The position numbers and the translations under genes are program-made. Source: Thermococcus gammatolerans EJ3 (GTDB lineage Archaea; Methanobacteriota_B; Thermococci; Thermococcales; Thermococcaceae). From it: a stretch of 64,000 nt of DNA. The stretch spans positions 1,364,001-1,428,000 of the forward strand of contig NC_012804.1 in NCBI RefSeq assembly GCF_000022365.1, written 5' to 3'. This document shows positions 13,059 through 27,583 of this stretch, piece by piece. Every line of letters begins with the position of its first letter. Position 1 is the first letter of the stretch. The notes below the pieces were generated by a model, which was given only the letters and a program-made list of their open reading frames with translations, had not been told where the DNA came from and searched no databases.

Positions 13059-13116
13059 AGGTAAATCTTAAAAGCACGTACACGTAATTATCCTGTTGAA
13101 TTTTGAGGTGATGAAC

Positions 13117-13266
13117 ATGGGAAAAAGAAGAGCCGTTACGTCGATGGCTGTGGCCCTTCTCCTACTCATGAGCGTGGGGGACCGTTGCGCTTTTGGAGCC
13201 ACAGCCAAAGCCGGACCTAATCCAGGACATGCCGAGGCCCGTGATAACGGGAATGAGGGTGCATAA
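13117..13266 (+). CDS. Signal-peptide frame of the metalloprotease gene, cut off by a frameshift
   Basis: An ATG at 13117 preceded by AGGTGAT opens a 49-codon frame that begins MGKRRAVTSMAVALLLLMSV, a classic signal peptide. After five G at 13176-13180 it continues as unconvincing sequence to a stop at 13266. Removing one G joins it smoothly to the long protease frame (...SVGTVALLEPQPKPD). A TATA box at 13066-13074 fits this start. The long frame has only a TTG at 13193 and no ribosome-binding site, so this is most likely the true 5' end of the protease gene. Confidence 0.65.
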   Translation: MGKRRAVTSMAVALLLLMSVGDRCAFGATAKAGPNPGHAEARDNGNEGA

Positions 13267-15715
13267 AACCGTCTGCAACGGAAAAGCAACCATAGACGTC
13301 ACGGTGAACAACTATGGATGGACCACCGCCGTGGGCACCCTGAAGGCCTACGTCGATGGAAACGCCGGGAACAGCGTGGGCATTGAAGTTGACCCCTACC
13401 ACCCGGAGACCTATACACTCACCGCCCCCGCGGAGCCGGGCGAGCACACCGTTAAGGTCGTTCTCACATATCCGGGAGGGAGTGATTCAATGAACAAAAC
13501 GGTGACACTCCTCAGGGATTCGGACTGCGAGTACCTCAGCGATCAGGAGGAATACGATTACGGAACAAATCCAAACGATCCAGACACGGACGACGATGGT
13601 GTCATAGACTCCAAGGATATGAACCCCCTTGGCGACTACAGGATAAAGATCTACATCCTCAGGGCGAGGGCGCTGGACGACGTTGACAGCGCTTTGGTTG
13701 GCCACAACCCCGCGGACATGAACCTTACCCTCACAGTAAACGGACAGACAAGGACGCTCTTCCTCACAAACGACCAGGACGACAAGGAAAATAAAATCCT
13801 CCCAACAGACGATCCCCTCCTCAACCTTGAGGACTACGCGATAGCCAAAGCCACTTTCGACGTCCCGGACGATAAGGTTTTCATCCCGATAACTTTCCAC
13901 CTTTATGACAAAGAGGGCAATAAAAAGGGAGAGGACATTGACATCTCCCCCGGCCCCGGAACCGTTGCGAGAATAATGTACAACCTCAAAACCGGAACCT
14001 GGAGCGGCGACGATTATCCGGGGGACGAGGAGAGATACTTCGGCTACGGCCACCTGAGCGGCTGCGGCGACGGCTCGTGCGGCGTTTCTTCCCACGATCC
14101 GAAAAAAGACCTCAAGGTCTACGTCAAGTACGAGAGCATCCTGGAAGAGAAAGGAATCAAGGGCGAGATCCTCAACATCACAACCATCCAGGATGTCAAA
14201 GAAGTCAGGGTAGGGGGCGGAAAAGGAGTGCTTTCAATATCCAGGCCGGGTAGCGTTAAAATAGCCACGGTAAGGCTCGAAAACGGCAGTGTGGTTAACG
14301 TCACCCTCGTCAACACCTACAACGCGAAAGTCCTCAGGGTAAATCCGATAAAGCCACCCCAAGGGCCGGACGCTTCTCTGGCCAGGGAAAACACAACCAC
14401 CGTGGAGTTGGTGGGCACGGCTCCGGATGAGCCGTTAAAGGGTGAAGTCGAGATAATCCCGATGGAAGGAGACCTCATTGATCCCGGCCTTGGGGAAGTC
14501 ATCACGTACTCCTCAAGGGAGGAGCACGACGGGGAGATCTGGTTCGTCATCGTGCCGGACGAGCCGGACGGGATACCCTTCTGGCGCGAGGTCGAGCTCA
14601 ACAAAGAGCTGGAAGCCAGCGGAATCTCAGAGAGGTTCGACCCGAGCGACGGCTATTACCTGCTGGAGACAAATTCGGGGGACTTCTGGTCCTGGCTTGA
14701 GCAGTTTTTGAAGTGGACGGACATAAATAACAAAGAGAAACTTGGGGACTACGATGGCGACGGTGTTCCGAACGCCGTCGAGGTCTTGATCGGGAAGGAT
14801 CCGGCGAAGAGGGATATACTCGGCATTGAGCTCACGGTGTCGGTGGAGTGGGACATGAGCGAGGAGGACAAGAGGAACTTAGCTTACAGCATCAGGAAAG
14901 CGAGTGATTTCGTCTACGACCACACGGACGGCTACGCGATGATAACCAGGGTTACGATCTGGGACGACAAGAAGAACTGGGATAAGGCTGATGTGAGGAT
15001 CTACAACACAGGCTGGCAAATTCTAATAATAAATGATGACCACTGGCCTTCCTCTTGGATTGGGGCATACTGGAACTCCACCTTGTTCATAGAGATGCCT
15101 AGAAGATTTTTCAGGTACTCCACAGATTCCAAAGGCGAAATGGGGAGTAGTAAGTGGGGTAAGACTTTAGGACATGAGATAGGTCATTATGTTTTCTGGT
15201 TTTGGGATGAGTATCAAGACTGGAACAGGCATAAATATAAGACTTGGTATACTACACAAATGGCACTATATTATCGGGGTGAAAGTGCATTCGATATAAG
15301 CAGAATTCTCTCCGATAAACTCCTAAGCATACATAGCGTTATGAATAATGAGTGGAAGTGGAGTGAACTGAGCACGCCAGGTGATTACAGTAGTTTTAAA
15401 GAGGATGCAATATACATATGGAGGACTTATTCCCACGCTTGGATTGTGGCAGGATATAAATCATGGGAGTACATGTTGCCAGAGCAATGGGGGAACTTAA
15501 CTCATAAAGACAAATGGCACTGTTCATCGTGGGAAGCGCTGTTTAAGTTCTTAACAGGATATGATAGGCCAGAATGGGTTAGAGGGCCATCCGTAGACAT
15601 TTGTATGGATCCGAATCTTGATGGCTCTTGCGACAAAGCGCTTCCACAAGATTACACTCCAAAAACCGGCCCGTACACTGGTGTTGGCTACTTTATGGAG
15701 GTGGTTTGGGGATGA
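13193..15715 (+). CDS. Large secreted zinc metalloprotease, CLCA-like HExxH...DEY motif, calcium repeats
   Basis: About 840 residues in this frame; its signal peptide is in another frame at 13117. Order: a CARDB-like beta domain (KATIDVTVNNYGWTTAVGTL), a DxDxDG calcium repeat (DPDTDDDGVIDSKDMNP), beta domains, a second calcium repeat (DYDGDGVPNAVEV, nt 14748-14787), then a catalytic region with LGHEIGHYVFWFWDEY (His codon at 15173). HExxH plus DEY at this spacing matches the protease motif of CLCA proteins. It should be an extracellular zinc endopeptidase. The 3' third (from about 15000) is clearly more A/T-rich than the 5' part. The last codons encode KTGPYTGVGYFMEVVWG, found again upstream of five downstream genes. 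Its stop overlaps the next start (ATGA). Confidence 0.8.
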   Translation: MEPQPKPDLIQDMPRPVITGMRVHKTVCNGKATIDVTVNNYGWTTAVGTLKAYVDGNAGNSVGIEVDPYHPETYTLTAPAEPGEHTVKVVLTYPGGSDSMNKTVTLLRDSDCEYLSDQEEYDYGTNPNDPDTDDDGVIDSKDMNPLGDYRIKIYILRARALDDVDSALVGHNPADMNLTLTVNGQTRTLFLTNDQDDKENKILPTDDPLLNLEDYAIAKATFDVPDDKVFIPITFHLYDKEGNKKGEDIDISPGPGTVARIMYNLKTGTWSGDDYPGDEERYFGYGHLSGCGDGSCGVSSHDPKKDLKVYVKYESILEEKGIKGEILNITTIQDVKEVRVGGGKGVLSISRPGSVKIATVRLENGSVVNVTLVNTYNAKVLRVNPIKPPQGPDASLARENTTTVELVGTAPDEPLKGEVEIIPMEGDLIDPGLGEVITYSSREEHDGEIWFVIVPDEPDGIPFWREVELNKELEASGISERFDPSDGYYLLETNSGDFWSWLEQFLKWTDINNKEKLGDYDGDGVPNAVEVLIGKDPAKRDILGIELTVSVEWDMSEEDKRNLAYSIRKASDFVYDHTDGYAMITRVTIWDDKKNWDKADVRIYNTGWQILIINDDHWPSSWIGAYWNSTLFIEMPRRFFRYSTDSKGEMGSSKWGKTLGHEIGHYVFWFWDEYQDWNRHKYKTWYTTQMALYYRGESAFDISRILSDKLLSIHSVMNNEWKWSELSTPGDYSSFKEDAIYIWRTYSHAWIVAGYKSWEYMLPEQWGNLTHKDKWHCSSWEALFKFLTGYDRPEWVRGPSVDICMDPNLDGSCDKALPQDYTPKTGPYTGVGYFMEVVWG
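15641..15715 (+). repeat. Protease-tail element, parent copy (in the protease gene)
   Basis: Encodes LPQDYTPKTG followed by PYTGVGYFMEVVWG and a stop. The end of this coding sequence holds GGAGGTG, the ribosome-binding site for the gene starting at 15712. Related copies occur at 21624, 22547, 23543, 24536 and 25506. Confidence 0.85.
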
Positions 15716-16620
15716 GGCGGAAGTTGTTTGCTCTCTTTCTTTTACTCACTCTCCTGCTCGGGTATTTGGCTTATTTGAACTCCCTCCCACTAGCAGTCAG
15801 AGCTTACAAACTCGCAAGAATCCCCAGCGACGAACAGTTAATAGCAGTTTACCACGACAAGGACTTCTGGCAGTTCGCGACTTATAACGAGAAGACTAAC
15901 ACGCTCAAGCTTTACACGGTTGAGCAATCATCTCCCCTCTGGCTGAAGAGGAGGAATGTAGAGAGCGTAAAAGCGCTGGTAAACTACACTCCCTTAGCTT
16001 TAGACTTAAAACTTCTCAAGAGCTATGAACCACACAGTAAAGCACTCCTCTTCAAAACCCTCGGCTGGAAATACGAAGAAGACATCAGCGGCTCATACTG
16101 GGCAAACCTGAGCGAAGTCATCCGGCCGGGAGAAAAATATTATCGGATTTACGGGCTCGGGAGCAGTTCTGGACTGTGGATTAAGTCAAAAGCCGTGTGC
16201 AGAAAAACCAACCTCGACATAGTATGCTACGGAACAGCGGGAACTAATGGGATTCTTGTGATCCCAGGATTTAAGGATAGTAAAATGCTGTGGGTAGTTG
16301 AAGGCATTAAGGGAAATCCCCAAGTGGCGTTCTTTTACCCTGGAGTGGTGCTCAAGAATGTGACAGAGGAGAACAAAGTGTTCACGTACTCCAGCGAAGA
16401 TAGGGAAGTAATTAAAAGCATTGTCCAAAAGCTTGAGGGGAAAAATCCCTCCTACTTGGAAGTATGGTTTTTAAGAAAAACCAAGTGCCCAGGCTACGGA
16501 CAAATTCTGACCAACAGGGGAGATTTCTGCGAGCTCTATGCTTGTTACAGCGGCAATTCAGCAAGCATAGAACTTGGAAACATCTCCTGCATTTCAAACC
16601 TCGAACTGAGAAACAGGTGA
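15712..16620 (+). CDS. Membrane-anchored cluster protein 1 (type A)
   Basis: 302 residues from the ATG at 15712, which overlaps the protease stop and has GGAGGTG upstream. N-terminal anchor RKLFALFLLLTLLLGYLAYL, then the type A signature RAYKLARIPSDEQLIAVYHD, FWQFATYN, NYTPLALDLKLL and ALLFKTLGWKY. The C-terminal half differs from other type A members: it is Cys-rich (VCRKTN...DIVCYG, TKCPGYG, DFCELYACYSG, NISCIS) and includes GILVIPGF and FFYPGVVL, variants of two motifs shared by the whole cluster. Its first 190 bp are nearly identical to the gene at 23581. As the gene coupled to the protease it is the best candidate for a dedicated partner or inhibitor. Function unknown. Confidence 0.8.
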   Translation: MRRKLFALFLLLTLLLGYLAYLNSLPLAVRAYKLARIPSDEQLIAVYHDKDFWQFATYNEKTNTLKLYTVEQSSPLWLKRRNVESVKALVNYTPLALDLKLLKSYEPHSKALLFKTLGWKYEEDISGSYWANLSEVIRPGEKYYRIYGLGSSSGLWIKSKAVCRKTNLDIVCYGTAGTNGILVIPGFKDSKMLWVVEGIKGNPQVAFFYPGVVLKNVTEENKVFTYSSEDREVIKSIVQKLEGKNPSYLEVWFLRKTKCPGYGQILTNRGDFCELYACYSGNSASIELGNISCISNLELRNR

Positions 16621-16625
16621 GGGAG

Positions 16626-17621
16626 ATGAAAAAGCTTACTGCTGTTTTAGGGCTTCTCTCAATCCTCCTTTTGCTCTTAGCTTACGCTTACTCTAACCAG
16701 CCTCACGAGACCATGAGCAGTCTCTATCAAAAAATCCCAGAACAAGTTAGAGAGAACGCACAGCTAATAGCGGCCTACTACTCCTCACAAAACGGGGACA
16801 GAGAGTACCAATTCGCGTTTTACGATCCAAAAGAGAGAACACTCAGCATTTACACTTTTAAGATTTCAAACTTTCTCAAAATCTTTTGGGACAAAGAGGA
16901 GAACAAGATAACCTGCGAAACGCCATTCAATTATTCTGTACTGGCCACCAGCCCAGAAAAACTCAAAAACTTCGAAAACTGCGACAACTGTAAGCTATTC
17001 CTTTACAAGGGCAGGATTTACAAGAATAAAGAAATCGAGAGCATTTACCCGTCAATCGAGCAGGTAATCAAGGAGAACACTACCTACGTTAATTTTGTGC
17101 TACTCAAGGATGAAGAACTATCCATTGGAGGAATAATTGAAAGACACGGGGACATGGGACTAGGGCCCGCATACTTTGGGTACAAGGGATTACTTCATCT
17201 ACCTACAACTATGCATAATCCGAGTAGAGGAGTCATAGTAGAGTTCATCGCAAAAAACGATACAATTCATGTAGTTATTCACTATCCAAAAAACATGACA
17301 TTTTCGACTATTTCAAGTGTCAGATTGAGAAAGGATTGGAACTCTACATGGAATCTAAAAGAAGTTCCACTCAGTGAAATCCTCCAAAAATCTAAATCCA
17401 AAGAACTTTCCCAAGAGATCAAAGGAAGTTTACGCTTTGAATTCTCTATTACCAAACGAGACAATAGAGCGGAAGCGTGGGCATCATGGATAAACTCTCG
17501 CAAACAGGCTCATGGTTACTGGAGGCTGTACCCACCAGACAAGATAGAGTGGAGAAGATTTACCTGCATTGAGAAAAGCTGTAGATGGACTGAAGAAAAC
17601 ATATTCGACCCATTTCCCTGA
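16626..17621 (+). CDS. Membrane-anchored cluster protein 2 (type B, IYPS class)
   Basis: 331 residues; start ATG 16626 with GGGAG upstream, not the upstream in-frame codons inside the previous gene. Anchor LTAVLGLLSILLLLLAYAYS, then the type B signature NQPHETMSSLYQKIPEQVRE, LIAAYYSSQNGDREYQFAFY and LSIYTFKIS. TPFNYSVLATSPEKL corresponds to NYSPLALD of type A, and NCDNCKLFLYKGRIY carries a CxxC pair. The C-terminal half belongs to the IYPSIEQV class (also at 18651 and 26585), with GLLHLPTTM and IHYPKNMT as its versions of the cluster motifs. Predicted single-pass protein with an extracytoplasmic, probably disulfide-bonded domain. Function unknown. Confidence 0.78.
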   Translation: MKKLTAVLGLLSILLLLLAYAYSNQPHETMSSLYQKIPEQVRENAQLIAAYYSSQNGDREYQFAFYDPKERTLSIYTFKISNFLKIFWDKEENKITCETPFNYSVLATSPEKLKNFENCDNCKLFLYKGRIYKNKEIESIYPSIEQVIKENTTYVNFVLLKDEELSIGGIIERHGDMGLGPAYFGYKGLLHLPTTMHNPSRGVIVEFIAKNDTIHVVIHYPKNMTFSTISSVRLRKDWNSTWNLKEVPLSEILQKSKSKELSQEIKGSLRFEFSITKRDNRAEAWASWINSRKQAHGYWRLYPPDKIEWRRFTCIEKSCRWTEENIFDPFP

Positions 17622-17653: not shown

Positions 17654-18637
17654 ATGATGAAAAATACAAAACTCCTTGCTCTCTTTGCATTCTTTTTGAT
17701 CATTCTTTTGCTCTTTGCTTATGCTTACTCTAACCAGCCCAACGAAACCATGAGCAGTCTCTACCAAAAAATCCCAGAACAAGTGAGAGAGAATTCCCAG
17801 CTAATAGCCGCTTACTACTCTTCACAGAATGGGGACAGAGAGTACCAATTCACGTTTTACGATCCAAAAGAGAGAACACTCAGCATTTACACGTTTAAAA
17901 TCTCCAAAATATTGAAAATTTGGCCGAGAATGACAGAAGACAAAATCTTCTGCAAGACCCCATTCAACTACTCAGTATTAGCAACAAGCCCAGAAAAGCT
18001 AAAAGACTTCGAAAACTGCAACAACTGTCGACTATTCTTATACAAGGACAGAATTTACAAGAACGAAGAAATTGAGGGGATCCAACCAAGACTCTCGGAA
18101 GTGTTAAAGGTGAACGAAAGCTACTGGCGAATTCAAATCCTCGGCGCCAGCGAACTATCAACAGGAAACATAATAGGCTCCTCTGGCGATGCTGGAGAAA
18201 TGTTTGGTCTTTCAGGTTATCCGGGATTGTTGATTCTTCCGGCAGGGAACAACGCGAGTAGAGGGGTAATCATCGCGATTCAACCGTTGAATGAAACTCA
18301 TGAGGTTATTAGAATACACTTCCCGCTGAACGTTACTTTTGAATTCGTGGAGAGACATTATGACAACCCAGATTTCCCCCTCTGGAGTTTGGAGAACTTG
18401 TCCAGTGCTGTTAAGCGTTTGCAGGCTTTCAAAATCGAGCCGAAACCATGGCGATGGGAGACTACACTAAGCGGCAAATACGCCGGAATAGCATGGTTCA
18501 CACAATCAGGGGCGTACTATGAATACGAAATACATCCTCAGTCAAAGTGGATTTATAATGGTGACTTCACAATATCACGGTTCGAGTTCAGGTGTAGGAG
18601 AGGAGGTGCATCCCCATACTCATACTACTACCCATAA
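17654..18637 (+). CDS. Membrane-anchored cluster protein 3 (type B, IQPR class)
   Basis: 327 residues; starts Met-Met at 17654 (17657 also possible) after GGAGG. N-terminal anchor and type B signature are almost the same as in the previous gene (NQPNETMSSLYQKIPEQVRE), but the C-terminal half switches to the IQPRLSEVLK class, shared with the gene at 25580: LGASELSTGNIIGSSGDAG, YPGLLILPAG, IHFPLNVTF, WSLENLSSAVKRLQAFKIEP. The change of class next to a common N-terminus indicates domain exchange. CxxC pair in NCNNCRLFLY. Function unknown. Confidence 0.78.
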   Translation: MMKNTKLLALFAFFLIILLLFAYAYSNQPNETMSSLYQKIPEQVRENSQLIAAYYSSQNGDREYQFTFYDPKERTLSIYTFKISKILKIWPRMTEDKIFCKTPFNYSVLATSPEKLKDFENCNNCRLFLYKDRIYKNEEIEGIQPRLSEVLKVNESYWRIQILGASELSTGNIIGSSGDAGEMFGLSGYPGLLILPAGNNASRGVIIAIQPLNETHEVIRIHFPLNVTFEFVERHYDNPDFPLWSLENLSSAVKRLQAFKIEPKPWRWETTLSGKYAGIAWFTQSGAYYEYEIHPQSKWIYNGDFTISRFEFRCRRGGASPYSYYYP

Positions 18638-18650
18638 CGGAGGTCGGAAG

Positions 18651-19664
18651 ATGAAGGAACTTCTCGTAGTTTTAGTTTTTGTTTCAATCCTTTTGCTCTT
18701 TGCTTACGCTTACTCTAACCAGCCCAACGAAACCATGAGCAGTCTCTACCAGAAAATTCCAGAGCAAGTTAGGGAAAATTCGCAGTTGATAGCGGCTTAT
18801 TACTCGTCCCAAACAGGCTTTGGCGGCTTTAGAGAGTATCAATTCGCCCTCTACAATCCAAACGATCGAACAATCAGCATTTACACGTTCAAAATCTCCA
18901 AACTCCTGAAAATCTGGCCGAGAATAACGGAAAACAAAATAACCTGTAAAACCCAGCTTAACTACTCCATCCTAGCCACCAGCCCAGAAAAACTCAAAAA
19001 CTTCAAAAACTGCGGCAATTGCAGAATACTCCTCTACAAGGACAGGATTTACAAGAATGGGGAAATCGAGAGCATTTACCCGTCAATCGAACAGGTAATC
19101 CGGGGCAAGGAGAACACTACTTACGTGAAACTCTCCCTCCTCAAAGACTCAGAAATCACCACTGGAGCAGTAGGGTTCGTCATTGGAGACATGGGATTCT
19201 ACACTGATGATGTTTATTATGGGAGGGGTTTGCTTTATTTGCCCAGTCCTATTGTGAATCTCACGAGGGGTGTTGTGGTTGAATTCCTGCCAGTGGACAA
19301 CGAGACCATTAAGAGGGTAATTCACTACCCGGGCAACGTTACCCTCTCCGACGAGTTCAAAATCACAAAATACTACAGGGTTAACATCACGCGGAACTTG
19401 ACTTGGACGTTAAAGGAAGTTCCAATCGAGCAGATTCTTCAAAAACTCGACTCTAAACAGCTCCAAAAAACCATTGGAGAGGACTCGAGAGTTAGGCTCG
19501 AAATATCCAAGGAACCCTTATGGGCCAAAACACCAAAACTCGAAGCCTGGCTAATATGGATAGACAAAGGGAAAACTGTGTATATAGAAAAACGAATATA
19601 TCCCACTGAAAAAACTTACAAGGAAAAATTCAGCTTCATCAGTGGTTATTACTGCGGCTGGTAG
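18651..19664 (+). CDS. Membrane-anchored cluster protein 4 (type B, IYPS class)
   Basis: 337 residues from ATG 18651 (GGAGGT upstream); the open frame extends back into the previous gene without a signal. Anchor VVLVFVSILLLFAYAYS, type B signature with a small insertion (SSQTGFGGFREYQFAL), TQLNYSILATSPEKL, NCGNCRILLYKDRIY, then the IYPSIEQVIRGKENTTYV class. Shared motifs RGLLYLPSPI and VIHYPGNVT are present. The end is WSYYCGW-like (SGYYCGW). Its stop region overlaps a possible upstream start of the next gene. Function unknown. Confidence 0.78.
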   Translation: MKELLVVLVFVSILLLFAYAYSNQPNETMSSLYQKIPEQVRENSQLIAAYYSSQTGFGGFREYQFALYNPNDRTISIYTFKISKLLKIWPRITENKITCKTQLNYSILATSPEKLKNFKNCGNCRILLYKDRIYKNGEIESIYPSIEQVIRGKENTTYVKLSLLKDSEITTGAVGFVIGDMGFYTDDVYYGRGLLYLPSPIVNLTRGVVVEFLPVDNETIKRVIHYPGNVTLSDEFKITKYYRVNITRNLTWTLKEVPIEQILQKLDSKQLQKTIGEDSRVRLEISKEPLWAKTPKLEAWLIWIDKGKTVYIEKRIYPTEKTYKEKFSFISGYYCGW

Positions 19665-19674
19665 AGGTGAAAAA

Positions 19675-20631
19675 ATGAGATCCTTCCTTGCTTTCCTCCT
19701 TGTTTTCCTCCTTTCCTTCCTTGCTTACAATGCTTACACTTACCACCAGCTCTCCTCAGCGGAAGGAGCTTACAAGTTAGCAGGAATTCCAAGCAGTGAA
19801 AAGCTCATTGCGGTCTATCATGATGAGAACTTCTGGCAGTTCGCCACCTACAACCCGAAAGCCCGAGAACTCAAAGTCTATTACGTTGGTCAGGATTTTC
19901 CTCTGCTCTTCAGGATAAAGAAAACAAAAACCGTGAAGACACCATTAAACTACTCCCCACTCGCTCTTGACTTGAAACTCCTCGAAAAAGCTCCAAAAGA
20001 AACTCCTGCATTACTCTTCGCCGGAAAATGGTACACTAAAGAAAACCCACCAGAATTCCCAACAGTAGAGCAAATACTCCAACAATACAACAACAAAACA
20101 ATGAGGAGATTGAGTGCTTATTATGCCGAAAAAGAACTCTGGATTGGGGCAATAACCATGCAGACAGGCGATGCAATTTATGGAGGAATAGGGCCCGGGC
20201 GAATTCTCGTAATACCAAGTTTGAAATCCTACATGGAAAAACCCTTTGTGTGGCGTGTTGAAATTCCAGCTGGAGGGGATAAGTCCCAGCACATTGTCTA
20301 TTACCCAGACGGAATTACAATCAAGGGATATGGAGAAGTTGTTCTCCCAAAAGCGTTTGTGATAGAGAAATGGGTTCTTGAAAAGTCTTTAAACGCAACA
20401 TTGAAAGCACTGGCAAAGCCTACCCCAATCTCAGGCTCTGCAAGGAGTTTTGTCGATCTAACGATATCCTGCTGGGACTCAAACTCAATAGAATGGAGCA
20501 TCATGTATATTACCAGATACTGGCCCGGTATCTCAATGCAGAACAAAATACCGGAAGGTTACGTTCTTAGTGACTATGGTCAAACCTCCGGAAAATGCCA
20601 AATAATTAGAACAGCCAATTCACAGGGGTGA
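19675..20631 (+). CDS. Membrane-anchored cluster protein 5 (type A)
   Basis: 318 residues from ATG 19675, preceded by GAGGTGA. Anchor SFLAFLLVFLLSFLAYNAYT followed by YHQLSSAEGAYKLAGIP, LIAVYHDENFWQFATYNPKA, TPLNYSPLALDLKLL and PALLFAGKWYTKENPPEF. C-terminal half of the class shared with 23581: KELWIGAITMQTGDAIYGGI, RILVIPSL, VYYPDGITI, YWPGISMQNKIPEGYVL. Nearly identical blocks to 22591 in the first 140 residues show recent duplication or conversion. It has no protease-tail element upstream. Function unknown. Confidence 0.78.
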   Translation: MRSFLAFLLVFLLSFLAYNAYTYHQLSSAEGAYKLAGIPSSEKLIAVYHDENFWQFATYNPKARELKVYYVGQDFPLLFRIKKTKTVKTPLNYSPLALDLKLLEKAPKETPALLFAGKWYTKENPPEFPTVEQILQQYNNKTMRRLSAYYAEKELWIGAITMQTGDAIYGGIGPGRILVIPSLKSYMEKPFVWRVEIPAGGDKSQHIVYYPDGITIKGYGEVVLPKAFVIEKWVLEKSLNATLKALAKPTPISGSARSFVDLTISCWDSNSIEWSIMYITRYWPGISMQNKIPEGYVLSDYGQTSGKCQIIRTANSQG

Positions 20632-20638
20632 TCCAGGG

Positions 20639-21622
20639 ATGAAGCGCTGGCTTTCACTTTTCTTTATTCTTCTCCTTCTTGCATGGGGAGTTAAAGCATA
20701 CCAAGTTCACACAAGCCTTACAACCCCCAGCAGAGTGCTCCAACTCATAAAGCACAACGAAAGCGAGGAGCTCATAGGAGCATACGTAAAAGAAGGAACG
20801 CTCGGCCCTAAATGGCAGTTAATATTCTACAACCCCAACAGCCAGAAAATCAGGATAGTCTCTTTAAGTGAGAAACTTGGATTAATTCCCGGACTCCTCA
20901 AAGAAACATATCTAAACCCAACGCCATATAACTACTCCCCGCTCTCAACTAACTTAGAACGCCTGAAAGATTGGGACGGAAAAACGCCCGCGCTTCTGTT
21001 TCACGAAAAGTGGTATTATAAATCAACCTTTCAAGGAATCCGCAACTTTCAGAACATCCAGAGCGAAAACCTCACCTTGCTTGGCATTTTTTACTCCAAA
21101 AACAGTTTCTGGATGGGAGTCCAAGGAATCAGAGTTTGCAACGCAGATTTCGGCTACCCCCCAGCTGGTCCCGGCGGAATCATAGTGCCGCCCAATCTCG
21201 CGGGTGACGGTGCCCCAACAGTTCTCGCGACTGTTAGGAACAAGGGAAACCATTCAGAAACATCGATAATATTCTTCGATGGATCTACTATCAACATAAC
21301 TGGGGCAGTTCACCCAGAGTGCATCATGGCCATCTTTGCAGATAGATTTGGAATGGTGTTCTGTGGCGATGCACGGAAAGAATTTTTGAAGGAAACTCAT
21401 GAAATTCCTAATTGCCCCTTTGAATTGAAGGACGTGAGCGAACTCGCCCAAATTTGGTATCGAGATGCGAGACAAAACCCAAGTAGGATGGCAATGTTTG
21501 TGGCCAGACCCGTGAAGGGTACTTCGAAGGACTGCAGTGCTGAGATAAGATGGGTGGTCATAACCCTAAAGGGAGAGGGTTATTGTGGCGACGAATACTC
21601 AGGAAAACTTGAGAACACGTAA
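20639..21622 (+). CDS. Membrane-anchored cluster protein 6 (type C)
   Basis: 327 residues; ATG 20639 follows the previous stop by seven bases, with GGGGTGA upstream. Anchor WLSLFFILLLLAWGVKAY, then type C features: VHTSLTTPSRVLQLI, ELIGAYVKEGTLGPKWQLIF, TPYNYSPLSTNLERLKDW, PALLFHEKWYYKS, and GPGGIIVPPNL in the position of the shared Gly-hydrophobic-Pro motif. The C-terminal half holds about seven Cys (VCNADF, HPECIM, VFCGD, PNCPF, KDCS, YCGD), likely disulfides outside the cell. One homologue lies at 24610, which lacks a roughly 30-residue segment around HPECIM. Function unknown. Confidence 0.78.
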   Translation: MKRWLSLFFILLLLAWGVKAYQVHTSLTTPSRVLQLIKHNESEELIGAYVKEGTLGPKWQLIFYNPNSQKIRIVSLSEKLGLIPGLLKETYLNPTPYNYSPLSTNLERLKDWDGKTPALLFHEKWYYKSTFQGIRNFQNIQSENLTLLGIFYSKNSFWMGVQGIRVCNADFGYPPAGPGGIIVPPNLAGDGAPTVLATVRNKGNHSETSIIFFDGSTINITGAVHPECIMAIFADRFGMVFCGDARKEFLKETHEIPNCPFELKDVSELAQIWYRDARQNPSRMAMFVARPVKGTSKDCSAEIRWVVITLKGEGYCGDEYSGKLENT

Positions 21623-21623
21623 C

Positions 21624-21695
21624 ATCCAAGGATACAAACCCAAAACCGGCCCCTACACCGGCGTCGGCTACTTCATGGAGGTGACTTGGGGATGA
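21624..21695 (+). repeat. Protease-tail element, copy before gene 21692
   Basis: In-frame it encodes IQGYKPKTGPYTGVGYFMEV then TWG and a stop that overlaps the next ATG (21692). Compared with the parent it differs mainly at third codon positions (ccc for ccg, acc for act, ggc for ggt, gtc for gtt, ttc for ttt) plus Thr for Val near the end. No ATG opens the element. Confidence 0.8.
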
Positions 21696-22540
21696 GGAAG
21701 ATAGCTGCCCTCTTGCTTTTGCTTTTTACCCTTACGGCATCTTGGATACTGTGGGAGAGTCATGAAGCCGTGTCCTGTTTTAACTCTCCATATTGCATGA
21801 CGGAACATCTTAACATAACAGACCACATACTCATCATGCAACACAACGGAAACGAATGGAGAATCGTCACATACACCACGGGGAAATTGTCCCTCCATAG
21901 AATCGAGCTCAGCGGTTCTATAATACCTGATATTAAAGACTCCACGAAAAGTGTCAGAACGCACATTGATTACTCACCCCTAACTTTTGAAAACAATGCC
22001 CTCAAAGGCTTGAAAGGAACAATCGGGCTCATTGCGAAGTTCAACGGAAGCGTTAAGGCTGTCCCACTCAAAGAACTCCAAAAGCCCCTTACCTGCTCCG
22101 AACTCCTGAAACTGTGTTCTTCATGCAAGCTCGTCCTCGGAGAAGGTGGGGACAAAGTGAGACTTGGATACACGAACCTCACAAGTGGTTACTTAGTCGT
22201 GCCCTCTCCCAGAGGTAGCTCCAGATTCGTCCTTGAAATCAAATCTTACAACGCAACCAAAGATGCCATAATCGCTAAATACCCAATGGGAATTGTCAAG
22301 GGTTATACCTCGAAGCTCAACCTCCCCCCGATTGAAAACACGAGCCTTCCAGCCAACGTTTCCCAGTACCTGGAGCCCGCATGGGGGATCCTGATAACAG
22401 GAAATGAAGTGGTGCTCAACCCCGACCCCTGGAGCATTGTTGAGGAACTGGGAGAATGCAGAACCGTGTACAAAATTACAATTCACAACAACGGAACAAT
22501 AGAAAAAACAGAATATGGGCTGCCCTGCTGGAGAAGGTAA
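21692..22540 (+). CDS. Membrane-anchored cluster protein 7 (type D)
   Basis: 282 residues from ATG 21692 (ribosome-binding site GGAGGTG supplied by the tail element). Anchor KIAALLLLLFTLTASWIL, then a divergent version of the cluster domain: HILIMQHNGNEWRIVTYTTG corresponds to LIAVYHDKDFWQFATYN, and HIDYSPLTFENNALKGLK to NYSPLALDLKLL. Cys-rich middle (TCSELLKLCSSCKLVLGEGG), GYLVVPSPRG and IAKYPMGIV match the two C-terminal motifs. It is the only member of its type here and the most divergent. Function unknown. Confidence 0.76.
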   Translation: MRKIAALLLLLFTLTASWILWESHEAVSCFNSPYCMTEHLNITDHILIMQHNGNEWRIVTYTTGKLSLHRIELSGSIIPDIKDSTKSVRTHIDYSPLTFENNALKGLKGTIGLIAKFNGSVKAVPLKELQKPLTCSELLKLCSSCKLVLGEGGDKVRLGYTNLTSGYLVVPSPRGSSRFVLEIKSYNATKDAIIAKYPMGIVKGYTSKLNLPPIENTSLPANVSQYLEPAWGILITGNEVVLNPDPWSIVEELGECRTVYKITIHNNGTIEKTEYGLPCWRR

Positions 22541-22546
22541 AACTAA

Positions 22547-22594
22547 AACCCCTACAATAGTGTTGGTTACTTTATGGAGGTGATGTGGGGATGA
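22547..22594 (+). repeat. Protease-tail element, copy before gene 22591
   Basis: Encodes NPYNSVGYFMEVMWG and a stop overlapping the ATG at 22591. It is shorter than the other copies (the KTG part is eroded) but keeps GYFMEV and the GGAGGTG ribosome-binding site. Confidence 0.75.
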
Positions 22595-23487
22595 AGAAGC
22601 TCCTTGCTTTGGTTTTACTTTTCCTTCTTTTCTTTGCCTATAACGCGTGCACTTACCACCAGCTCTCCTCAGCGGAAGGGGCTTATAAACTGGCGGGAAT
22701 TTCAGGAGATGAAAAGCTCATTGCAGTCTATCACGATAGTAATTTCTGGCAGTTCGCAACGTACAACCCGAAAGCCCGAGAACTCAAAGTCTACTACCTC
22801 AGTCAGGCTCATCCATTAGACTTCAGAATCAAGAAAACAAAAACTGTGAAGACACCTTTGAACTATTCCCCTCTCGCCCTTGACTTAAAACTCCTTGAAA
22901 AAGCACCAAAAGAAACTCCTGCATTACTCTTCGCCGGAAAATGGTACACTCCTGAAAACCCGCCAGAATTCCCAAGCTTTGACGAGATAATCAAAGGATA
23001 CACCAACAAAACGATCCGAAGGATTGCCCTCTTATACGCGAGGAAAGAACTCTGGATACAAACATACCTCCAAGTGACCGCAAGAGCCTATGAGGTGGGA
23101 ACGAAGGATGTACTAGTAATTCCAAGTTTTGGAAATACCTCCGGGGGAATCTGGGTTGTTGAGACTCCGCAAGGAAAGAACTCTACCAAAACTGTGTACT
23201 ATCCGGGCACTAAAATAGTAGGGAACGTTACCCCGGTGTACTTAGGTTCATTTGTTTTAAACAACAGAAATTCTATTGAGAGTGCACTTTATGAAGCGCT
23301 TTCAAATCTCAGCAAAACCACCAGCTTCGCAAAGATCGAGGTTTACTGCTTCTCCCCACAAGCCGATGTTGATACTGTAACCATCAAAAGATACTACCAA
23401 GGGATCTCTATGGAAAAATACTTCCAATTCTACTACCTCCACAGGGACACAATTAAAGTTTTAGGGGGATGCAAGACTACTCGCTAA
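22591..23487 (+). CDS. Membrane-anchored cluster protein 8 (type A)
   Basis: 298 residues from ATG 22591. Anchor KLLALVLLFLLFFAYNACTY (with a Cys) and the type A signature SSAEGAYKLAGISGDEKLIA, FWQFATYNPKARELKVYYL, TPLNYSPLALDLKLLEKAP, PALLFAGKWYTPENPPEFPS. The C-terminal half is its own class: RKELWIQTYLQVTARAYEVG, DVLVIPSFGN, VYYPGTKIVG, KRYYQGISMEKYF. Its N-terminal half is closest to the gene at 19675, its middle to 23581. Function unknown. Confidence 0.78.
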   Translation: MKKLLALVLLFLLFFAYNACTYHQLSSAEGAYKLAGISGDEKLIAVYHDSNFWQFATYNPKARELKVYYLSQAHPLDFRIKKTKTVKTPLNYSPLALDLKLLEKAPKETPALLFAGKWYTPENPPEFPSFDEIIKGYTNKTIRRIALLYARKELWIQTYLQVTARAYEVGTKDVLVIPSFGNTSGGIWVVETPQGKNSTKTVYYPGTKIVGNVTPVYLGSFVLNNRNSIESALYEALSNLSKTTSFAKIEVYCFSPQADVDTVTIKRYYQGISMEKYFQFYYLHRDTIKVLGGCKTTR

Positions 23488-23542
23488 TTCAGGTGAGGAT
23501 CTAAAAATGATTTGAGGGAAGGCCAATATTGAGATTTGGAAA

Positions 23543-23584
23543 CTAACGAGCGTCGGCTACTTTATGGAGGTGGTTTGGGGATGA
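23543..23584 (+). repeat. Protease-tail element, copy before gene 23581
   Basis: Encodes LTSVGYFMEVVWG and a stop overlapping the ATG at 23581. From 23555 onward it is identical to the parent copy (15686 onward), and the identity continues into the coding sequence. Confidence 0.8.
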
Positions 23585-24504
23585 GGCGGAAGTTGTTTGC
23601 TCTCTTTCTTTTACTCACTCTCCTGCTCGGGTATTTGGCTTATTTGAACTCCCTCCCACTAGCAGTCAGAGCTTACAAACTCGCAAGAATCCCCAGCGAC
23701 GAACAATTAATAGCAGTTTACCACGACAAGGACTTCTGGCAGTTCGCCACTTACAACCCCAAAACCCAAAAACTGAAAGTTTACGCCCTTTACACTGACA
23801 AACCAATCCTCCCCTGGGGAAGAGACGTAAAAACCGTAAAAACACCATTAAACTACTCCCCACTCGCCCTTGACTTGGACCTTCTTGAAGAAGTACCAAA
23901 GGAAACTCCCGCATTACTCTTCGCCGGAAAATGGTACACGAAAGAAAACCCGCCAGAATTCCCAAGCTTTGACGAGATAACCAAAGAATACAAGAACAAG
24001 ACCCTACGGGAACTCACGGCATACTACGCTAAAAAAGAACTGTGGATTGGCAGCATAACACTCCAAACGGGAGATGTCCTTTATGGAAGTATTGGGCCCG
24101 TTTGGACCCTCACAGTTCCAGATCTTCAAGATGAGGGAAATTCAGGTTTTGTATGGGAGGTTGAAGTTGTTAAGGAGAAGAACGCATCATTGTGGGTCGT
24201 CCATTATCCCGGGGACGTGAAGGTGAGCGGAGTGGGTGAAGTCCTCTACAGACAGAGCTCCATAGCAGTCTCAAAAGCTTATACTAGCCTAGATAATGCA
24301 TTCAAGTGGCTCAACAGAACTTCGTATCCAAAACAGAACCCAGTGTTCCTGCAATTCACAGTTTACTCAATGAAGTCCAAAACGATCCAAGCGGGCGTTT
24401 TAGTTCTCAAATACTACCAAAAGGGTATTTCAATGAAGAAAAAGTTACCAGACGGATATGTGCTGATGGATGGTACCGATATCCCAGTGAATAACAGTTC
24501 ATAG
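23581..24504 (+). CDS. Membrane-anchored cluster protein 9 (type A)
   Basis: 307 residues from ATG 23581. The first 55 codons are the same as in cluster protein 1 (RRKLFALFLLLTLLLGYLAY; AYKLARIPSDEQLIAVYHDK), with one base difference over about 190 bp. After that it follows the class of 19675: TPLNYSPLALDLDLLEEVP, PALLFAGKWYTKENPPEFPS, KELWIGSITLQTGDVLYGSI, WTLTVPDLQ, VHYPGDVKV, KYYQKGISMKKKLPDGYVL. So it is a hybrid of the front of protein 1 and the back of protein 5. Function unknown. Confidence 0.78.
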   Translation: MRRKLFALFLLLTLLLGYLAYLNSLPLAVRAYKLARIPSDEQLIAVYHDKDFWQFATYNPKTQKLKVYALYTDKPILPWGRDVKTVKTPLNYSPLALDLDLLEEVPKETPALLFAGKWYTKENPPEFPSFDEITKEYKNKTLRELTAYYAKKELWIGSITLQTGDVLYGSIGPVWTLTVPDLQDEGNSGFVWEVEVVKEKNASLWVVHYPGDVKVSGVGEVLYRQSSIAVSKAYTSLDNAFKWLNRTSYPKQNPVFLQFTVYSMKSKTIQAGVLVLKYYQKGISMKKKLPDGYVLMDGTDIPVNNSS

Positions 24505-24535
24505 GCTCGAAACATTAAATGGGAGCGGAGACCCA

Positions 24536-24613
24536 ATGAACTCTCGGCAAGCTTCATCCGTTGGCCCCCCCTACACTGGTGTTGGCTACTTCATGGAGGT
24601 GGTCTGGGGATGA
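24536..24613 (+). repeat. Protease-tail element forming a 25-codon mini-ORF before gene 24610
   Basis: Starts with its own ATG (24536) and encodes MNSRQASSVGPPYTGVGYFM then EVVWG; its stop overlaps the ATG at 24610. It could be translated as a leader that couples to the next gene through the internal GGAGGTG. Confidence 0.75.
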
Positions 24614-25509
24614 AATGGATTGGGACTCTCTTTATTTTTATTCTCCTCGCAGTATCCCTGTGGGGCCTCCAGGCTTACAGAGTCCACGAGACGTTAACAA
24701 GTCCAGATAAGACCTTTGAGATGGCAACCGGAGAGAACGCACAACTAATTGCCGCATACGTCGATAAAGGAATGCTCGCCCCCACATGGCATTTCGCCTT
24801 CTACAATCCAAAAACGCGGAATATTTTTGTTACCAGCGTAAAGGAAAGCCTCTGGCCTTGGCCCCACATAACTCTCAAAAAACAGGCCTGCCCAACAGAG
24901 TACAATTACTCCTCTCTGGCCATTCAAAGAACACTCTTGAAAAACTGGAGGGGGCAAGCTCCTGCACTCCTCTTCAATGGCACATGGTACTCTCGGGATG
25001 ACCAAAAAGATGCACTTTCAATGCTCACAAGTCTCAGGATTCAAAACGCATCATTTGGTAAAATTGGATTGTTCTACTCTAAAAATGGCTTCTGGGTGGG
25101 GCTAGATGAGATAAAATCCTGTGGAGGAGACTACTCTTTCCCACCCGCTGGGCCTGGAGGCATTTTAGTTCCTCCAGAGTTGTCAGACAAAAATCTCCCG
25201 ACAGTCATAGAGATTACGTGGAACTCCCCCTACGGCTCAGAAAGAGCATTGGTGTTTTTTAATGGAGCCATAATTAAAGCCCATACAACAAAACCCCTTA
25301 CCTGTCCGTTCGAACTTCGAAACCTTACCGGCGCTTTGAGAATCTGGAGGGAATACTTTGAATACAACCCCAATAGAATGGCACTGTGGGTTTCCCGTCC
25401 CCTTGATACTTCGTCTAAGGAGTGCACCAACAAAACAACATGGGTCATCATTGCCCTCCGTAATGGGGATTGTGGAAACGAATGGTGGGGAAAACTTGAG
25501 GACACATGA
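24610..25509 (+). CDS. Membrane-anchored cluster protein 10 (type C)
   Basis: 299 residues from ATG 24610. Anchor WIGTLFIFILLAVSLWGLQAY, then RVHETLTSPDKTFEMATGEN, LIAAYVDKGMLAPTWHFAFY, TEYNYSSLAIQRTLLKNW, PALLFNGTWYS, GPGGILVPPEL. Shorter than its homologue at 20639 by a Cys-containing insert, but with the same end (IWREYFEYNPNRMALWVSRP, ECTNKTTW, DCGNEWWGKLEDT). Several Cys suggest disulfides. The stop overlaps the mini-ORF of the next tail element. Function unknown. Confidence 0.78.
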   Translation: MKWIGTLFIFILLAVSLWGLQAYRVHETLTSPDKTFEMATGENAQLIAAYVDKGMLAPTWHFAFYNPKTRNIFVTSVKESLWPWPHITLKKQACPTEYNYSSLAIQRTLLKNWRGQAPALLFNGTWYSRDDQKDALSMLTSLRIQNASFGKIGLFYSKNGFWVGLDEIKSCGGDYSFPPAGPGGILVPPELSDKNLPTVIEITWNSPYGSERALVFFNGAIIKAHTTKPLTCPFELRNLTGALRIWREYFEYNPNRMALWVSRPLDTSSKECTNKTTWVIIALRNGDCGNEWWGKLEDT

Positions 25510-25583
25510 TGCCAAAAGATGTTAATCCAAAAACCGGCCCCTACACCGGCGTTGGCTACTTCCTGGAGGTGGTCCGAGGATGA
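25506..25583 (+). repeat. Protease-tail element forming a 25-codon mini-ORF before gene 25580
   Basis: Begins ATGATG overlapping the stop of the previous gene and encodes MMPKDVNPKTGPYTGVGYFL then EVVRG; the stop overlaps the ATG at 25580. MPKDVNPKTG lines up with LPQDYTPKTG of the protease, so homology covers at least 24 residues. Confidence 0.8.
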
Positions 25584-26551
25584 GGAAACTCCTCGCCATC
25601 TTGGGTTTTCTTTTTGTGGGTTTTCTCTTACTCTTTGCCTACGCTTACTCTGACCAGCCTCATGAGACTATGAGCACTCTCTACCAAAAAATCCCAGAGC
25701 AAGTTAGAGAAAACTCCCAACTCATCGCAGCTTACTACTCTTCACAGAATGGGGACAGAGAGTACCAGTTCGCGTTTTATAATCAAAAAAACCAGACGCT
25801 CAGCATTTACACGTTCAGTATTTCAAACTTCCTCAAAATCTTCTGGGACGAAGAGAAAAACAAAATAACCTGCAAGACCCCATTCAACTACTCCATACTA
25901 GCCACTAGCCCTGAAAAGTTAAAAGACTTCACAAACTGCGACAATTGTAGAATACTCCTCTACAAGGGCAAGATTTACAGGAATGAGGAGATTGAGGAGA
26001 TTCAACCAAGACTTTCGGAAGTGTTAAAGGCAAACGAAAGCTACTGGCAGGTTGAAATCCTCGGCGCCAGCGAACTATCAACAGGAGACATAATAGGTTC
26101 CTCTGGCGATGCTGGAAGAATATTTGGTCTTTCAGGGTACCCAGGATTGCTGATTCTCCCAGCTGGCGATAACGCAAGCAGAGGAGTAACCATCACAGTC
26201 CAGCCTTTCAACAAAACTAAGGACGTTGTCAAAATACACTTTCCACTCAACATTACTTTTAAGTTCAAGCAAAGGCATTATAGCGACAGTTATGATTACT
26301 CTCCTTGGAGTTTGGAGAACTTGTCCAGTGCTGTGAAGCGTTTGCAGGCTTTTAAGATTGAACCAAAACCATGGCGCTGGGAGGCCACACTCAGCGGGGA
26401 ATACGCAGGAATAGCATGGTTCACACAATCCGGAAGATACTACCAATACAAAATCTACCCACAGATAGAATGGGAGGATAGAGGACACTCCCAGTTGTCT
26501 GTTCACGTCAGATGCCGGAGTGGAGGATGGGTGCCCTTCCGCTATCCCTAA
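25580..26551 (+). CDS. Membrane-anchored cluster protein 11 (type B, IQPR class)
   Basis: 323 residues from ATG 25580. Anchor LLAILGFLFVGFLLLFAYAY, type B front (DQPHETMSTLYQKIPEQVRE, AAYYSSQNGDREYQFAFY), TPFNYSILATSPEKLKDF, NCDNCRILLYKGKIY, then the IQPRLSEVLKANESYW class shared with 17654: LSTGDIIGSSGDAGRIFGLS, PGLLILPAGDN, IHFPLNITF, WSLENLSSAVKRLQAFKIEP. The two C-terminal halves differ by scattered substitutions, so the duplication is older than that of the type A fronts. Function unknown. Confidence 0.78.
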   Translation: MRKLLAILGFLFVGFLLLFAYAYSDQPHETMSTLYQKIPEQVRENSQLIAAYYSSQNGDREYQFAFYNQKNQTLSIYTFSISNFLKIFWDEEKNKITCKTPFNYSILATSPEKLKDFTNCDNCRILLYKGKIYRNEEIEEIQPRLSEVLKANESYWQVEILGASELSTGDIIGSSGDAGRIFGLSGYPGLLILPAGDNASRGVTITVQPFNKTKDVVKIHFPLNITFKFKQRHYSDSYDYSPWSLENLSSAVKRLQAFKIEPKPWRWEATLSGEYAGIAWFTQSGRYYQYKIYPQIEWEDRGHSQLSVHVRCRSGGWVPFRYP

Positions 26552-26584: not shown

Positions 26585-27583
26585 ATGAGGGCTCTAACGG
26601 TCTTTGGATTCTTTTTAATCATCCTTTTACTCTTTGCATACGCTTACTCTAACCAGCCTCATGAGACTATGAGCACTCTCTACCAGAAGATTCCAGAAGA
26701 GGTTAGAGAGAACGCACAGCTAATAGCGGCCTACTACTCCTCACAGAATGGGGACAGAGAGTACCAATTCGCGTTTTACGATCCAAAAGAGAGAACACTC
26801 AGCATTTACACGTTTAAAATCATCACTCTCTTCAAAATCACCTTGAATGAAAAAAAGAGCAGAATATCCTGCAAGACTCCATTCAACTACTCCATCCTGG
26901 CCACCAGCCCGGAAAAACTCAAAAACTTCACAAACTGTGACAACTGCAGAATACTCCTCTACAAAGACAAGATTTACAAGAACGAGGAAATCGAGAGCAT
27001 TTACCCGTCAATTGAGGAGATGATCCGAGGCAAAGAGAACACCACTTACGTGAACCTTGTACTCATGAAAGACAGGGAGATCTCAATGGGAGTAATAATA
27101 GAACGTGTTGGAGATCATGGACTTGTGCGGGGCTTCCTCGGTTACTGGGGACTGCTCCACATGCCATCCACCATGAGCAGCCCGTGGAGGGGAGTAATAA
27201 TAGAATTCACTACGAAAAGCAATGGGACGATTAACGTGATCGCACACTACCCGGGCAACGTTACACTCTCAACAATAGCCGAAGTTAAAGCACTAAGCAA
27301 CAAGACTTGGGAATTAAAAGAAGTTCCCTTAGAAGACGTTATTCAGGCGTTGAAGTCCAAAAAGCTCGTGGGCAGTGTTAAGGGCTCGCTCCGATTTGAG
27401 TTCTCAATCACGAGGGAGGGAGAGAGAATTGAAGCGTGGGCAGCCTGGGTGAACCCGGAAAAGGGCGTTTTAGCGTTCTGTAGAATATCGCCCCCCGGAA
27501 AAATCACGCGCAACGAGTTCAACGAATTTGACGGGTACCTGTGCACTCGGTATGGAAGTGACATTTTGGAAAAACTACCATAA
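26585..27583 (+). CDS. Membrane-anchored cluster protein 12 (type B, IYPS class)
   Basis: 332 residues from ATG 26585. Anchor ALTVFGFFLIILLLFAYAYS, type B front, CxxC pair in NCDNCRILLYKDKIY, and the IYPSIEEMIRGKENTTYV class with ISMGVIIERVGDHG, GLLHMPSTM, AHYPGNVTL. Stretches of its N-terminal coding sequence are base-for-base the same as in the gene at 16626 (for example the segment encoding YQFAFYDPKERTLSIYT), pointing to conversion between members 10 kb apart. It is the last intact member. Function unknown. Confidence 0.78.
   Translation: MRALTVFGFFLIILLLFAYAYSNQPHETMSTLYQKIPEEVRENAQLIAAYYSSQNGDREYQFAFYDPKERTLSIYTFKIITLFKITLNEKKSRISCKTPFNYSILATSPEKLKNFTNCDNCRILLYKDKIYKNEEIESIYPSIEEMIRGKENTTYVNLVLMKDREISMGVIIERVGDHGLVRGFLGYWGLLHMPSTMSSPWRGVIIEFTTKSNGTINVIAHYPGNVTLSTIAEVKALSNKTWELKEVPLEDVIQALKSKKLVGSVKGSLRFEFSITREGERIEAWAAWVNPEKGVLAFCRISPPGKITRNEFNEFDGYLCTRYGSDILEKLP

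What the first reader, a model, noticed from the sequence alone, without database searches (positions are those of the whole stretch)
21624..25583. Fossil protease tails act as ready-made translation-initiation cassettes
Five elements (21624, 22547, 23543, 24536, 25506) encode versions of KTGPYTGVGYFMEVVWG in frame, end in a stop overlapping the next ATG, and contain its GGAGGTG. Between copies many changes are synonymous (ccg/ccc/cct, act/acc, ggt/ggc, gtt/gtc, ttt/ttc), so they derive from protease genes that diverged under selection for the peptide, not from simple copying of this one tail. Two copies (24536, 25506) begin with their own ATG and form 25-codon leader ORFs.
Basis: seen in the sequence. 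Interest (0 to 1): 0.82.

Follow-up and report, generated by a model that had tools for sequence, protein, structure and literature searches.

The report
Eroded protease ends mark displaced genes
In heat-loving Thermococcus archaea, short leftovers of protease genes sit in front of a row of related surface-protein genes: each seems to be what remains of an older protease variant that was pushed down the row, kept because it contains the ribosome-binding site that starts the next gene.

Summary
Five fossil tails plus the live protease end lie where stated, far above chance. Similar tails occur in other Thermococcales: 33 are still protease-coded and 33 are fossils. Live tails differ almost only at third codon positions (pos1/2/3 = 0.06/0.01/0.60). 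Fossils keep that synonymous variation but have lost peptide constraint (0.24/0.23/0.48). The ATG-GAG-GTG that forms the next gene's Shine-Dalgarno (SD) site stays almost unchanged in both. So the tails do come from diverged protease alleles, and only the SD end is still held by selection. The leader ORFs are not conserved. The wider picture was missed. The locus is a hypervariable module: a lead protease with conserved N part and variable metzincin-like HExxH C-terminal domain, followed by a row of membrane-anchored proteins of one unknown family. The first of these covaries with the catalytic domain (partial Mantel r=0.63, p=0.0003) but not with the N part. Other genomes hold intermediates: displaced catalytic fragments of 103-369 aa, and one species has the intact protease before the orthologue of a gene that carries only a remnant elsewhere. 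This is the orphan-cassette pattern of polymorphic toxin systems. Toxin and immunity functions are inferred, not shown.

The parts
13193..15715 (+). Lead protease body (840 aa ORF): conserved N part with weak CARDB/TSP3-type matches, conserved junction DYDGDGVPNAVEVLIGKDP (from 14747), variable HEIGH catalytic domain, conserved tail
13111..13192 (+). Signal-peptide-like start of the lead protease, in a different frame from the body; apparent frame break at the G5 run 13176-13180
   Evidence: alignment with G032, which has a longer G run
15665..15715 (+). Live tail TGPYTGVGYFMEVVWG*, with SD GGAGGTG at 15697-15703 and TGA overlapping the next ATG (15712)
15712..16620 (+). Downstream-family gene B1, first after the protease; 4-nt overlap
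16626..17621 (+). Downstream-family gene A1 (no tail)
17654..18637 (+). Downstream-family gene A2 (no tail)
18651..19664 (+). Downstream-family gene A3 (no tail)
19675..20631 (+). Downstream-family gene B2 (no tail)
20639..21622 (+). Downstream-family gene C1 (no tail)
21624..21695 (+). Fossil tail 1 (NIQGYKPKTGPYTGVGYFMEVTWG*), SD 21677-21683; closest live tail is that of G032 (L049), 93%
21692..22540 (+). Downstream-family gene D1
22547..22594 (+). Fossil tail 2 (peptide broken by two stops), SD 22576-22582; the same broken tail is shared with G032 (L048 13314)
22591..23487 (+). Downstream-family gene B3; its relative in G024 (83% aa) lies directly behind a live protease
23543..23584 (+). 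Fossil tail 3 (peptide kept only from SVGYF), SD 23566-23572; 23552-23757 is 98.1% identical to 15683-15888 (recent copy)
23581..24504 (+). Downstream-family gene B4
24536..24613 (+). Fossil tail 4, 25-codon ORF, SD 24595-24601
24610..25509 (+). Downstream-family gene C2
25506..25583 (+). Fossil tail 5, 25-codon ORF whose ATG overlaps the stop of C2, SD 25565-25571
25580..26551 (+). Downstream-family gene A4 (AlphaFold2 model, pLDDT 85)
26585..27583 (+). Downstream-family gene A5 (no tail)

Best explanation
The tails are the eroded 3' ends of protease genes that once stood first in this array. The locus works like a polymorphic toxin locus. A lead exported protease keeps a conserved N part and swaps its C-terminal HExxH domain, together with the gene behind it, by recombination. 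Older [catalytic domain + partner gene] pairs are pushed downstream. Shown: displaced catalytic fragments of many lengths; fossil tails; fossils inherit protease-type synonymous variation but no longer keep the peptide; the SD nucleotides stay fixed; the partner gene covaries with the catalytic domain. Inferred: erosion stops at the tail because it holds the SD and start context of the partner gene, which is still useful; the partner protects the cell from, or holds, its matching protease. Confidence is about 0.85 for origin and retention and about 0.5 for the toxin/immunity function.
For: The same tail ends every lead protease of the family, with the stop overlapping the next start in the SD-bearing class. 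Live/fossil codon-position contrast with an invariant SD. GTG is used 17/17 times in the SD Val codon of live MEV tails, against 312 of 1,303 Val codons in protease bodies and 0/17 for the Val of GVGY six codons upstream: the protein end is bent to the SD. Intermediates: displaced C-terminal fragments of 103-369 aa, most keeping HExxH, inside arrays of G014, G029, G041, G055, G067 and G093. Direct before/after pair: in G041 the intact protease precedes a downstream gene; in G037 its orthologue (79% DNA) has only a remnant of about 60 codons including the tail (76% aa), and in G067 a 294-aa fragment. Partial Mantel, catalytic domain vs first downstream gene given N part: r=0.63, p=0.0003; N part given catalytic domain: r=-0.15, p=0.95. 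DNA homology blocks begin inside tails 71 times against 0.4 expected, and end there 8 times: the tail travels with the gene after it.
Against: Catalytic domain and partner do not always match: L053/L056 have 75% identical domains but 48% identical partners, and window/G032 have 80% identical partners but 43% identical domains. No toxin activity, secretion route or inhibition is demonstrated. Six of 12 downstream genes in the window have no tail, so a tail is not required. The window's own lead protease may be frameshifted. The random-shift control does not preserve gene boundaries, so its excess is an upper estimate.
Confidence: 0.75

Rival explanations
1. Plain tandem duplication: a downstream gene with about 60 bp of upstream DNA was copied again and again from the resident protease/gene junction, with no displacement of other protease variants.
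For: One clear case: 15683-15888 vs 23552-23757 at 98.1%. The array is a paralogue family.
Against: The resident live tail is the best match for only 9 of 31 fossils; several match a foreign allele far better. Displaced fragments in other genomes are foreign catalytic domains: the 369-aa fragment in G014 is a different domain from that genome's lead protease. Tails precede genes of all four types.
Confidence: 0.1
2. The tails are functional leader ORFs that couple translation of, or regulate, the next gene through the peptide they encode.
For: Two 25-codon ORFs in the window. A 30-codon ORF with its own SD is kept in G058 and G060 with differences 1/2/8 at codon positions. ATGA overlaps are known to couple translation in archaea (PMC6728339, abstract).
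Against: 9 of 33 fossils have no in-frame start and some carry stops. Peptide constraint is lost in fossils. A plain SD suffices.
Confidence: 0.08
3. The tails are site-specific recombination sites (att- or attC-like) used by a dedicated recombinase to shuffle the genes.
For: Homology blocks start at tails; contents of arrays differ between species.
Against: No gene-sized ORF other than protease and downstream family fits between 13193 and 27583. Conserved bases are explained by the SD and the peptide. Displaced fragments begin at many places, often the conserved protein junction, and not at the tail.
Confidence: 0.04
4. The module is a surface-recognition or nutrient-processing protease system with variable accessory proteins, not a toxin/immunity system.
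For: Thermococcales feed on peptides. The published VARTIG module has a similar layout and its authors leave adhesion, self-recognition and immunity open (PMC8416519).
Against: Long rows of partner genes without proteases, patchy distribution (24 of 94 genomes) and displaced catalytic cassettes are typical of conflict systems; the partner tracks the catalytic domain, not the N part.
Confidence: 0.35

Closest known systems
Polymorphic toxin systems (Rhs / CdiA C-terminal displacement; PMC3482391, PMC3150448)
   Same: Conserved N part, variable C-terminal domain, partner gene directly behind it, displaced orphan C-terminal cassettes, a string of partner genes that are remnants of earlier recombinations.
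   Different: The catalytic domain is a metzincin-like protease matching no known family model; partners are membrane-anchored and probably outside the cell; a conserved short tail follows the variable domain and encodes the next gene's SD; restricted to Thermococcales as far as found.
VARTIG, hypervariable Ig-protein module of Thermococcales (PMC8416519)
   Same: Same order, large lead exported protein at the 5' end, C-terminal variability, row of small membrane proteins, different contents in every species.
   Different: VARTIG lead proteins (arCOG07710) carry Ig domains and a DNNxxxGG C-terminal motif and no toxin was found; here the lead is an HExxH protease ending in PKTGPYTGVGYFMEV. Whether the two share downstream genes was not tested.
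M64 / metzincin metalloproteases (IgA protease 9ekk; myroilysin, ADAMTS4)
   Same: HExxH followed by DEY and a conserved Met; best structural neighbours of the model are metzincins.
   Different: Only weak sequence match (E=0.023) and no structural match at E<=0.001.

Membership tests
Polymorphic toxin system | Conserved N-terminal part with hypervariable C-terminal domain | tested here: met
   Alignments A2 and A3: body and junction conserved, catalytic region variable; identity to the window domain is 29-58%
Polymorphic toxin system | Partner gene directly behind the variable domain and varying with it | tested here: met
   Partial Mantel r=0.63 p=0.0003 given N part; reverse r=-0.15 p=0.95, with exceptions
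Polymorphic toxin system | Displaced orphan C-terminal cassettes behind the full gene | tested here: met
   Internal fragments starting at profile positions 477-520, 619-620 and 694-718; some others are cut by contig ends
Polymorphic toxin system | C-terminal domain is toxic to rivals | not testable with these tools
   HExxH conserved in intact and most displaced domains; no activity data
Polymorphic toxin system | Partner neutralises its toxin | not testable with these tools
   Partner has an N-terminal helix that looks like a membrane anchor and a confident beta-rich domain with no PDB match
Polymorphic toxin system | Lead protein is exported | tested here: inconclusive
   Signal-peptide-like start in G032; in the window it is out of frame
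VARTIG | Lead protein of arCOG07710 type with DNNxxxGG C-terminal motif | tested here: not met
   All lead proteins here end in GPYTGVGY plus a short extension
Metzincin / M64 peptidase | Significant match to a family profile or solved structure | tested here: not met
   Only E=0.023 by sequence and no structural match at E<=0.001; no Pfam peptidase match
Leader-peptide regulator | Conserved short ORF with start codon and constrained peptide | tested here: not met
   Starts missing in 9 of 33, peptide constraint lost

The most novel reading that the evidence does not exclude
An undescribed archaeal weapon system: Thermococcales exchange variable exported metzincin-like proteases with matched membrane-anchored immunity proteins, and a short protein tail that doubles as ribosome-binding site serves as the common adaptor that lets any cassette be expressed after insertion and leaves a readable record of past cassettes.
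Probability: 0.4. Interest if true: 0.78.

Novelty: new variant of a known kind. Interest (0 to 1): 0.6.

Why it matters
Archaeal antagonism is poorly known. The VARTIG authors wrote that the recombination sites of such Thermococcales modules could not be located and that no toxin could be named. Here a module of similar layout has an obvious enzyme as its variable part, a partner that tracks it, and fossils that mark earlier insertions, so the displacement model can be tested by comparing strains. The tail is also a clean case of a protein C-terminus shaped by the next gene's Shine-Dalgarno site, with the two constraints separable because one is lost in the fossils.

Tried and rejected
Chance similarity: rejected. 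Simple copying of the resident tail as the general source: rejected, though one copy is recent. The translated-leader idea: weakened. Pfam, NCBIfam and PDB sequence searches of the downstream family gave nothing useful; the Pfam ETRAMP hit is below its cut-off and sits on the N-terminal helix. Structure search of the downstream protein found no match. The catalytic-domain model is of middling confidence (pLDDT 70), so its metzincin neighbours are only suggestive. A scan of genome contigs found relatives only in Thermococcaceae MAGs, but it relies on two short peptide patterns. Pattern hits in G015 were not tails and had neither gene family nearby. A pairwise DNA alignment of G037 with G041 upstream of the tail failed to align and was uninformative; tblastn was used instead. 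Literature: only VARTIG and general toxin-system papers were found; the 2019 mBio survey of archaeal polymorphic toxins is not held, so prior description of this protease module cannot be excluded.

Full report
WHAT IS THERE. The window lies in a 2.05-Mb Thermococcus-type genome (window = C1:1364001-1428000). A lead protease ORF (13193-15715) ends in PKTGPYTGVGYFMEVVWG*, and its TGA overlaps the ATG of the next gene. Behind it stand 12 genes of one protein family (about 280-340 aa, N-terminal hydrophobic helix, conserved T..NYS.L and a late Cys). Five of the later genes (21692, 22591, 23581, 24610, 25580) are preceded by a piece of DNA homologous to the protease end. Scores are 58-90 against at most 29 in shuffles. 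One further copy is at C1:77485.

HOW WIDESPREAD. A tail pattern was found in 17 of 94 genomes of the order, the downstream family in 19 and the protease in 24. Over the fetched loci I classed 33 tails as still coded by a protease ORF or protease fragment and 33 as fossils.

WHERE THE FOSSILS COME FROM. In live tails of the SD-bearing class (n=18), pairwise differences in TGPYTGVGY are 0.060, 0.012 and 0.597 at codon positions 1, 2 and 3: the peptide is under strong selection. In fossils (n=20) they are 0.240, 0.225 and 0.484: synonymous differences inherited from diverged live genes plus amino-acid changes and stops gained later. The FMEV codons that form the SD hardly vary at any position in either group, 0.03-0.07 in live and 0.05-0.10 in fossils. 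The resident live tail is the closest one for only 9 of 31 fossils; window 21645 is 93% identical to a G032 tail and 81% to its own. Two window fossils (22544, 23534) and partly 24563 are too decayed for a firm match.

THE SD BENDS THE PROTEIN END. In live MEV tails the Glu codon is GAG 17/17 and the Val codon GTG 17/17. In protease bodies GAG is 646 of 1,162 and GTG 312 of 1,303; by simple multiplication GTG 17/17 has a chance near 3e-11. The Val in GVGY six codons upstream is never GTG in the same genes. In protease branches whose next gene uses a different start context the tail reads YYLRV, YYMIV and so on, mostly with other codons. PKTGPYTGVGY is thus a protein signal of unknown role and the last codons are shared with the next gene.

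INTERMEDIATES. Other arrays contain protease C-terminal fragments of 103 to 369 aa between downstream genes, most with HExxH, each ending in a tail, many with the next gene overlapping. Four internal ones begin at profile positions 477-520, at or just after the conserved DYDGDGVPN.VE.LIGKDP junction; others begin at 619-620 and 694-718. Several contigs also break at 474-536, as expected if that junction is repeated in the genome. The clearest before/after case: in G041 the intact protease (tail VPKVGPYTGVGYFMEV) is followed by a downstream gene; in G037 the orthologue of that gene (753 identities, 205 mismatches) follows a remnant of about 60 codons, 76% identical to the G041 protease end; in G067 a 294-aa catalytic fragment precedes it. 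In G019 the same chromosomal site, with the same flanking genes, holds only about 500 bp: a piece of protease end, a tail and the start of a downstream gene.

WHAT TRAVELS WITH WHAT. DNA homology blocks between loci start inside a tail in both partners 71 times (0.4 expected with shifted tails) and end there 8 times. The tail travels with the gene after it. The control ignores gene boundaries, so the size of the excess is approximate. For 21 protease/first-gene pairs the downstream gene's distance follows the catalytic domain's distance (r=0.42, p=0.0005), more strongly when the N part is controlled for (r=0.63, p=0.0003; 0.55 without near-identical pairs), whereas the N part given the catalytic domain shows nothing (r=-0.15, p=0.95). 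There are clear exceptions, so pairing is not strict.

PROTEINS. The catalytic domain has HExxH, a conserved DEY seven residues after the second His and a conserved Met, weakly matches M64 IgA protease (E=0.023; the M64 name is from my own knowledge), and its model (pLDDT 70) finds metzincins as nearest, not significant, structures. The downstream protein model is confident (pLDDT 85, pTM 0.85): one N-terminal helix, which I read as a membrane anchor, and a mostly beta domain without PDB match. I infer that both act on the outer face of the cell; this was not tested.

MECHANISM. Shown: common origin, loss of peptide constraint, SD retention, intermediates, covariation. Inferred: new [catalytic domain + partner] pairs enter at the conserved junction by homologous recombination; the old pair is displaced; its protease part erodes from the 5' side; the last 40-75 bp persist because the partner's SD and start lie in them; partners remain useful, most simply as protection against proteases still carried by neighbours. 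[quoted passage not shown] It differs from VARTIG (PMC8416519) in its lead protein.

VERDICT. Observation confirmed; origin claim supported; leader-ORF claim not supported; the larger finding is a hypervariable protease module of Thermococcales with a fossil record of past cassettes.

Noticed in passing
window 13176-13180: The lead protease's signal-peptide start and its body are in different frames; the break falls at a run of five G, where G032 has a run of eight. It may be a sequencing error, a pseudogene or a length-variable switch.
   Followed up: partly
L064 10517 and L065 7849 (G060, G058): A 30-codon ORF ending in a tail, with its own GGAGG and ATG, is kept in two genomes with 1/2/8 differences at codon positions 1/2/3; a possible real small peptide.
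   Followed up: partly
L044 7770-8310 (G019): The same chromosomal site as the window's array holds only a scar: protease end, tail and first part of a downstream gene. The site looks like a hot spot shared by G000, G019, G029, G032 and partly G055.
   Followed up: partly
G000 C1:77485-80154 and C1:1830128-1830787 (L043, L077): Two further clusters of the downstream family in the same genome without a recognisable protease; the first begins with a fossil tail.
   Followed up: no
L038/L045 (G001, a different genus, and G023): Protease end (98% aa) and first downstream gene (95% aa) almost identical across genera, while the next fossil tail differs: likely recent transfer.
   Followed up: no
window 15712-16620 and 23581-24504: Downstream genes are themselves mosaics: near-identical N-terminal parts joined to different C-terminal parts.
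   Followed up: no
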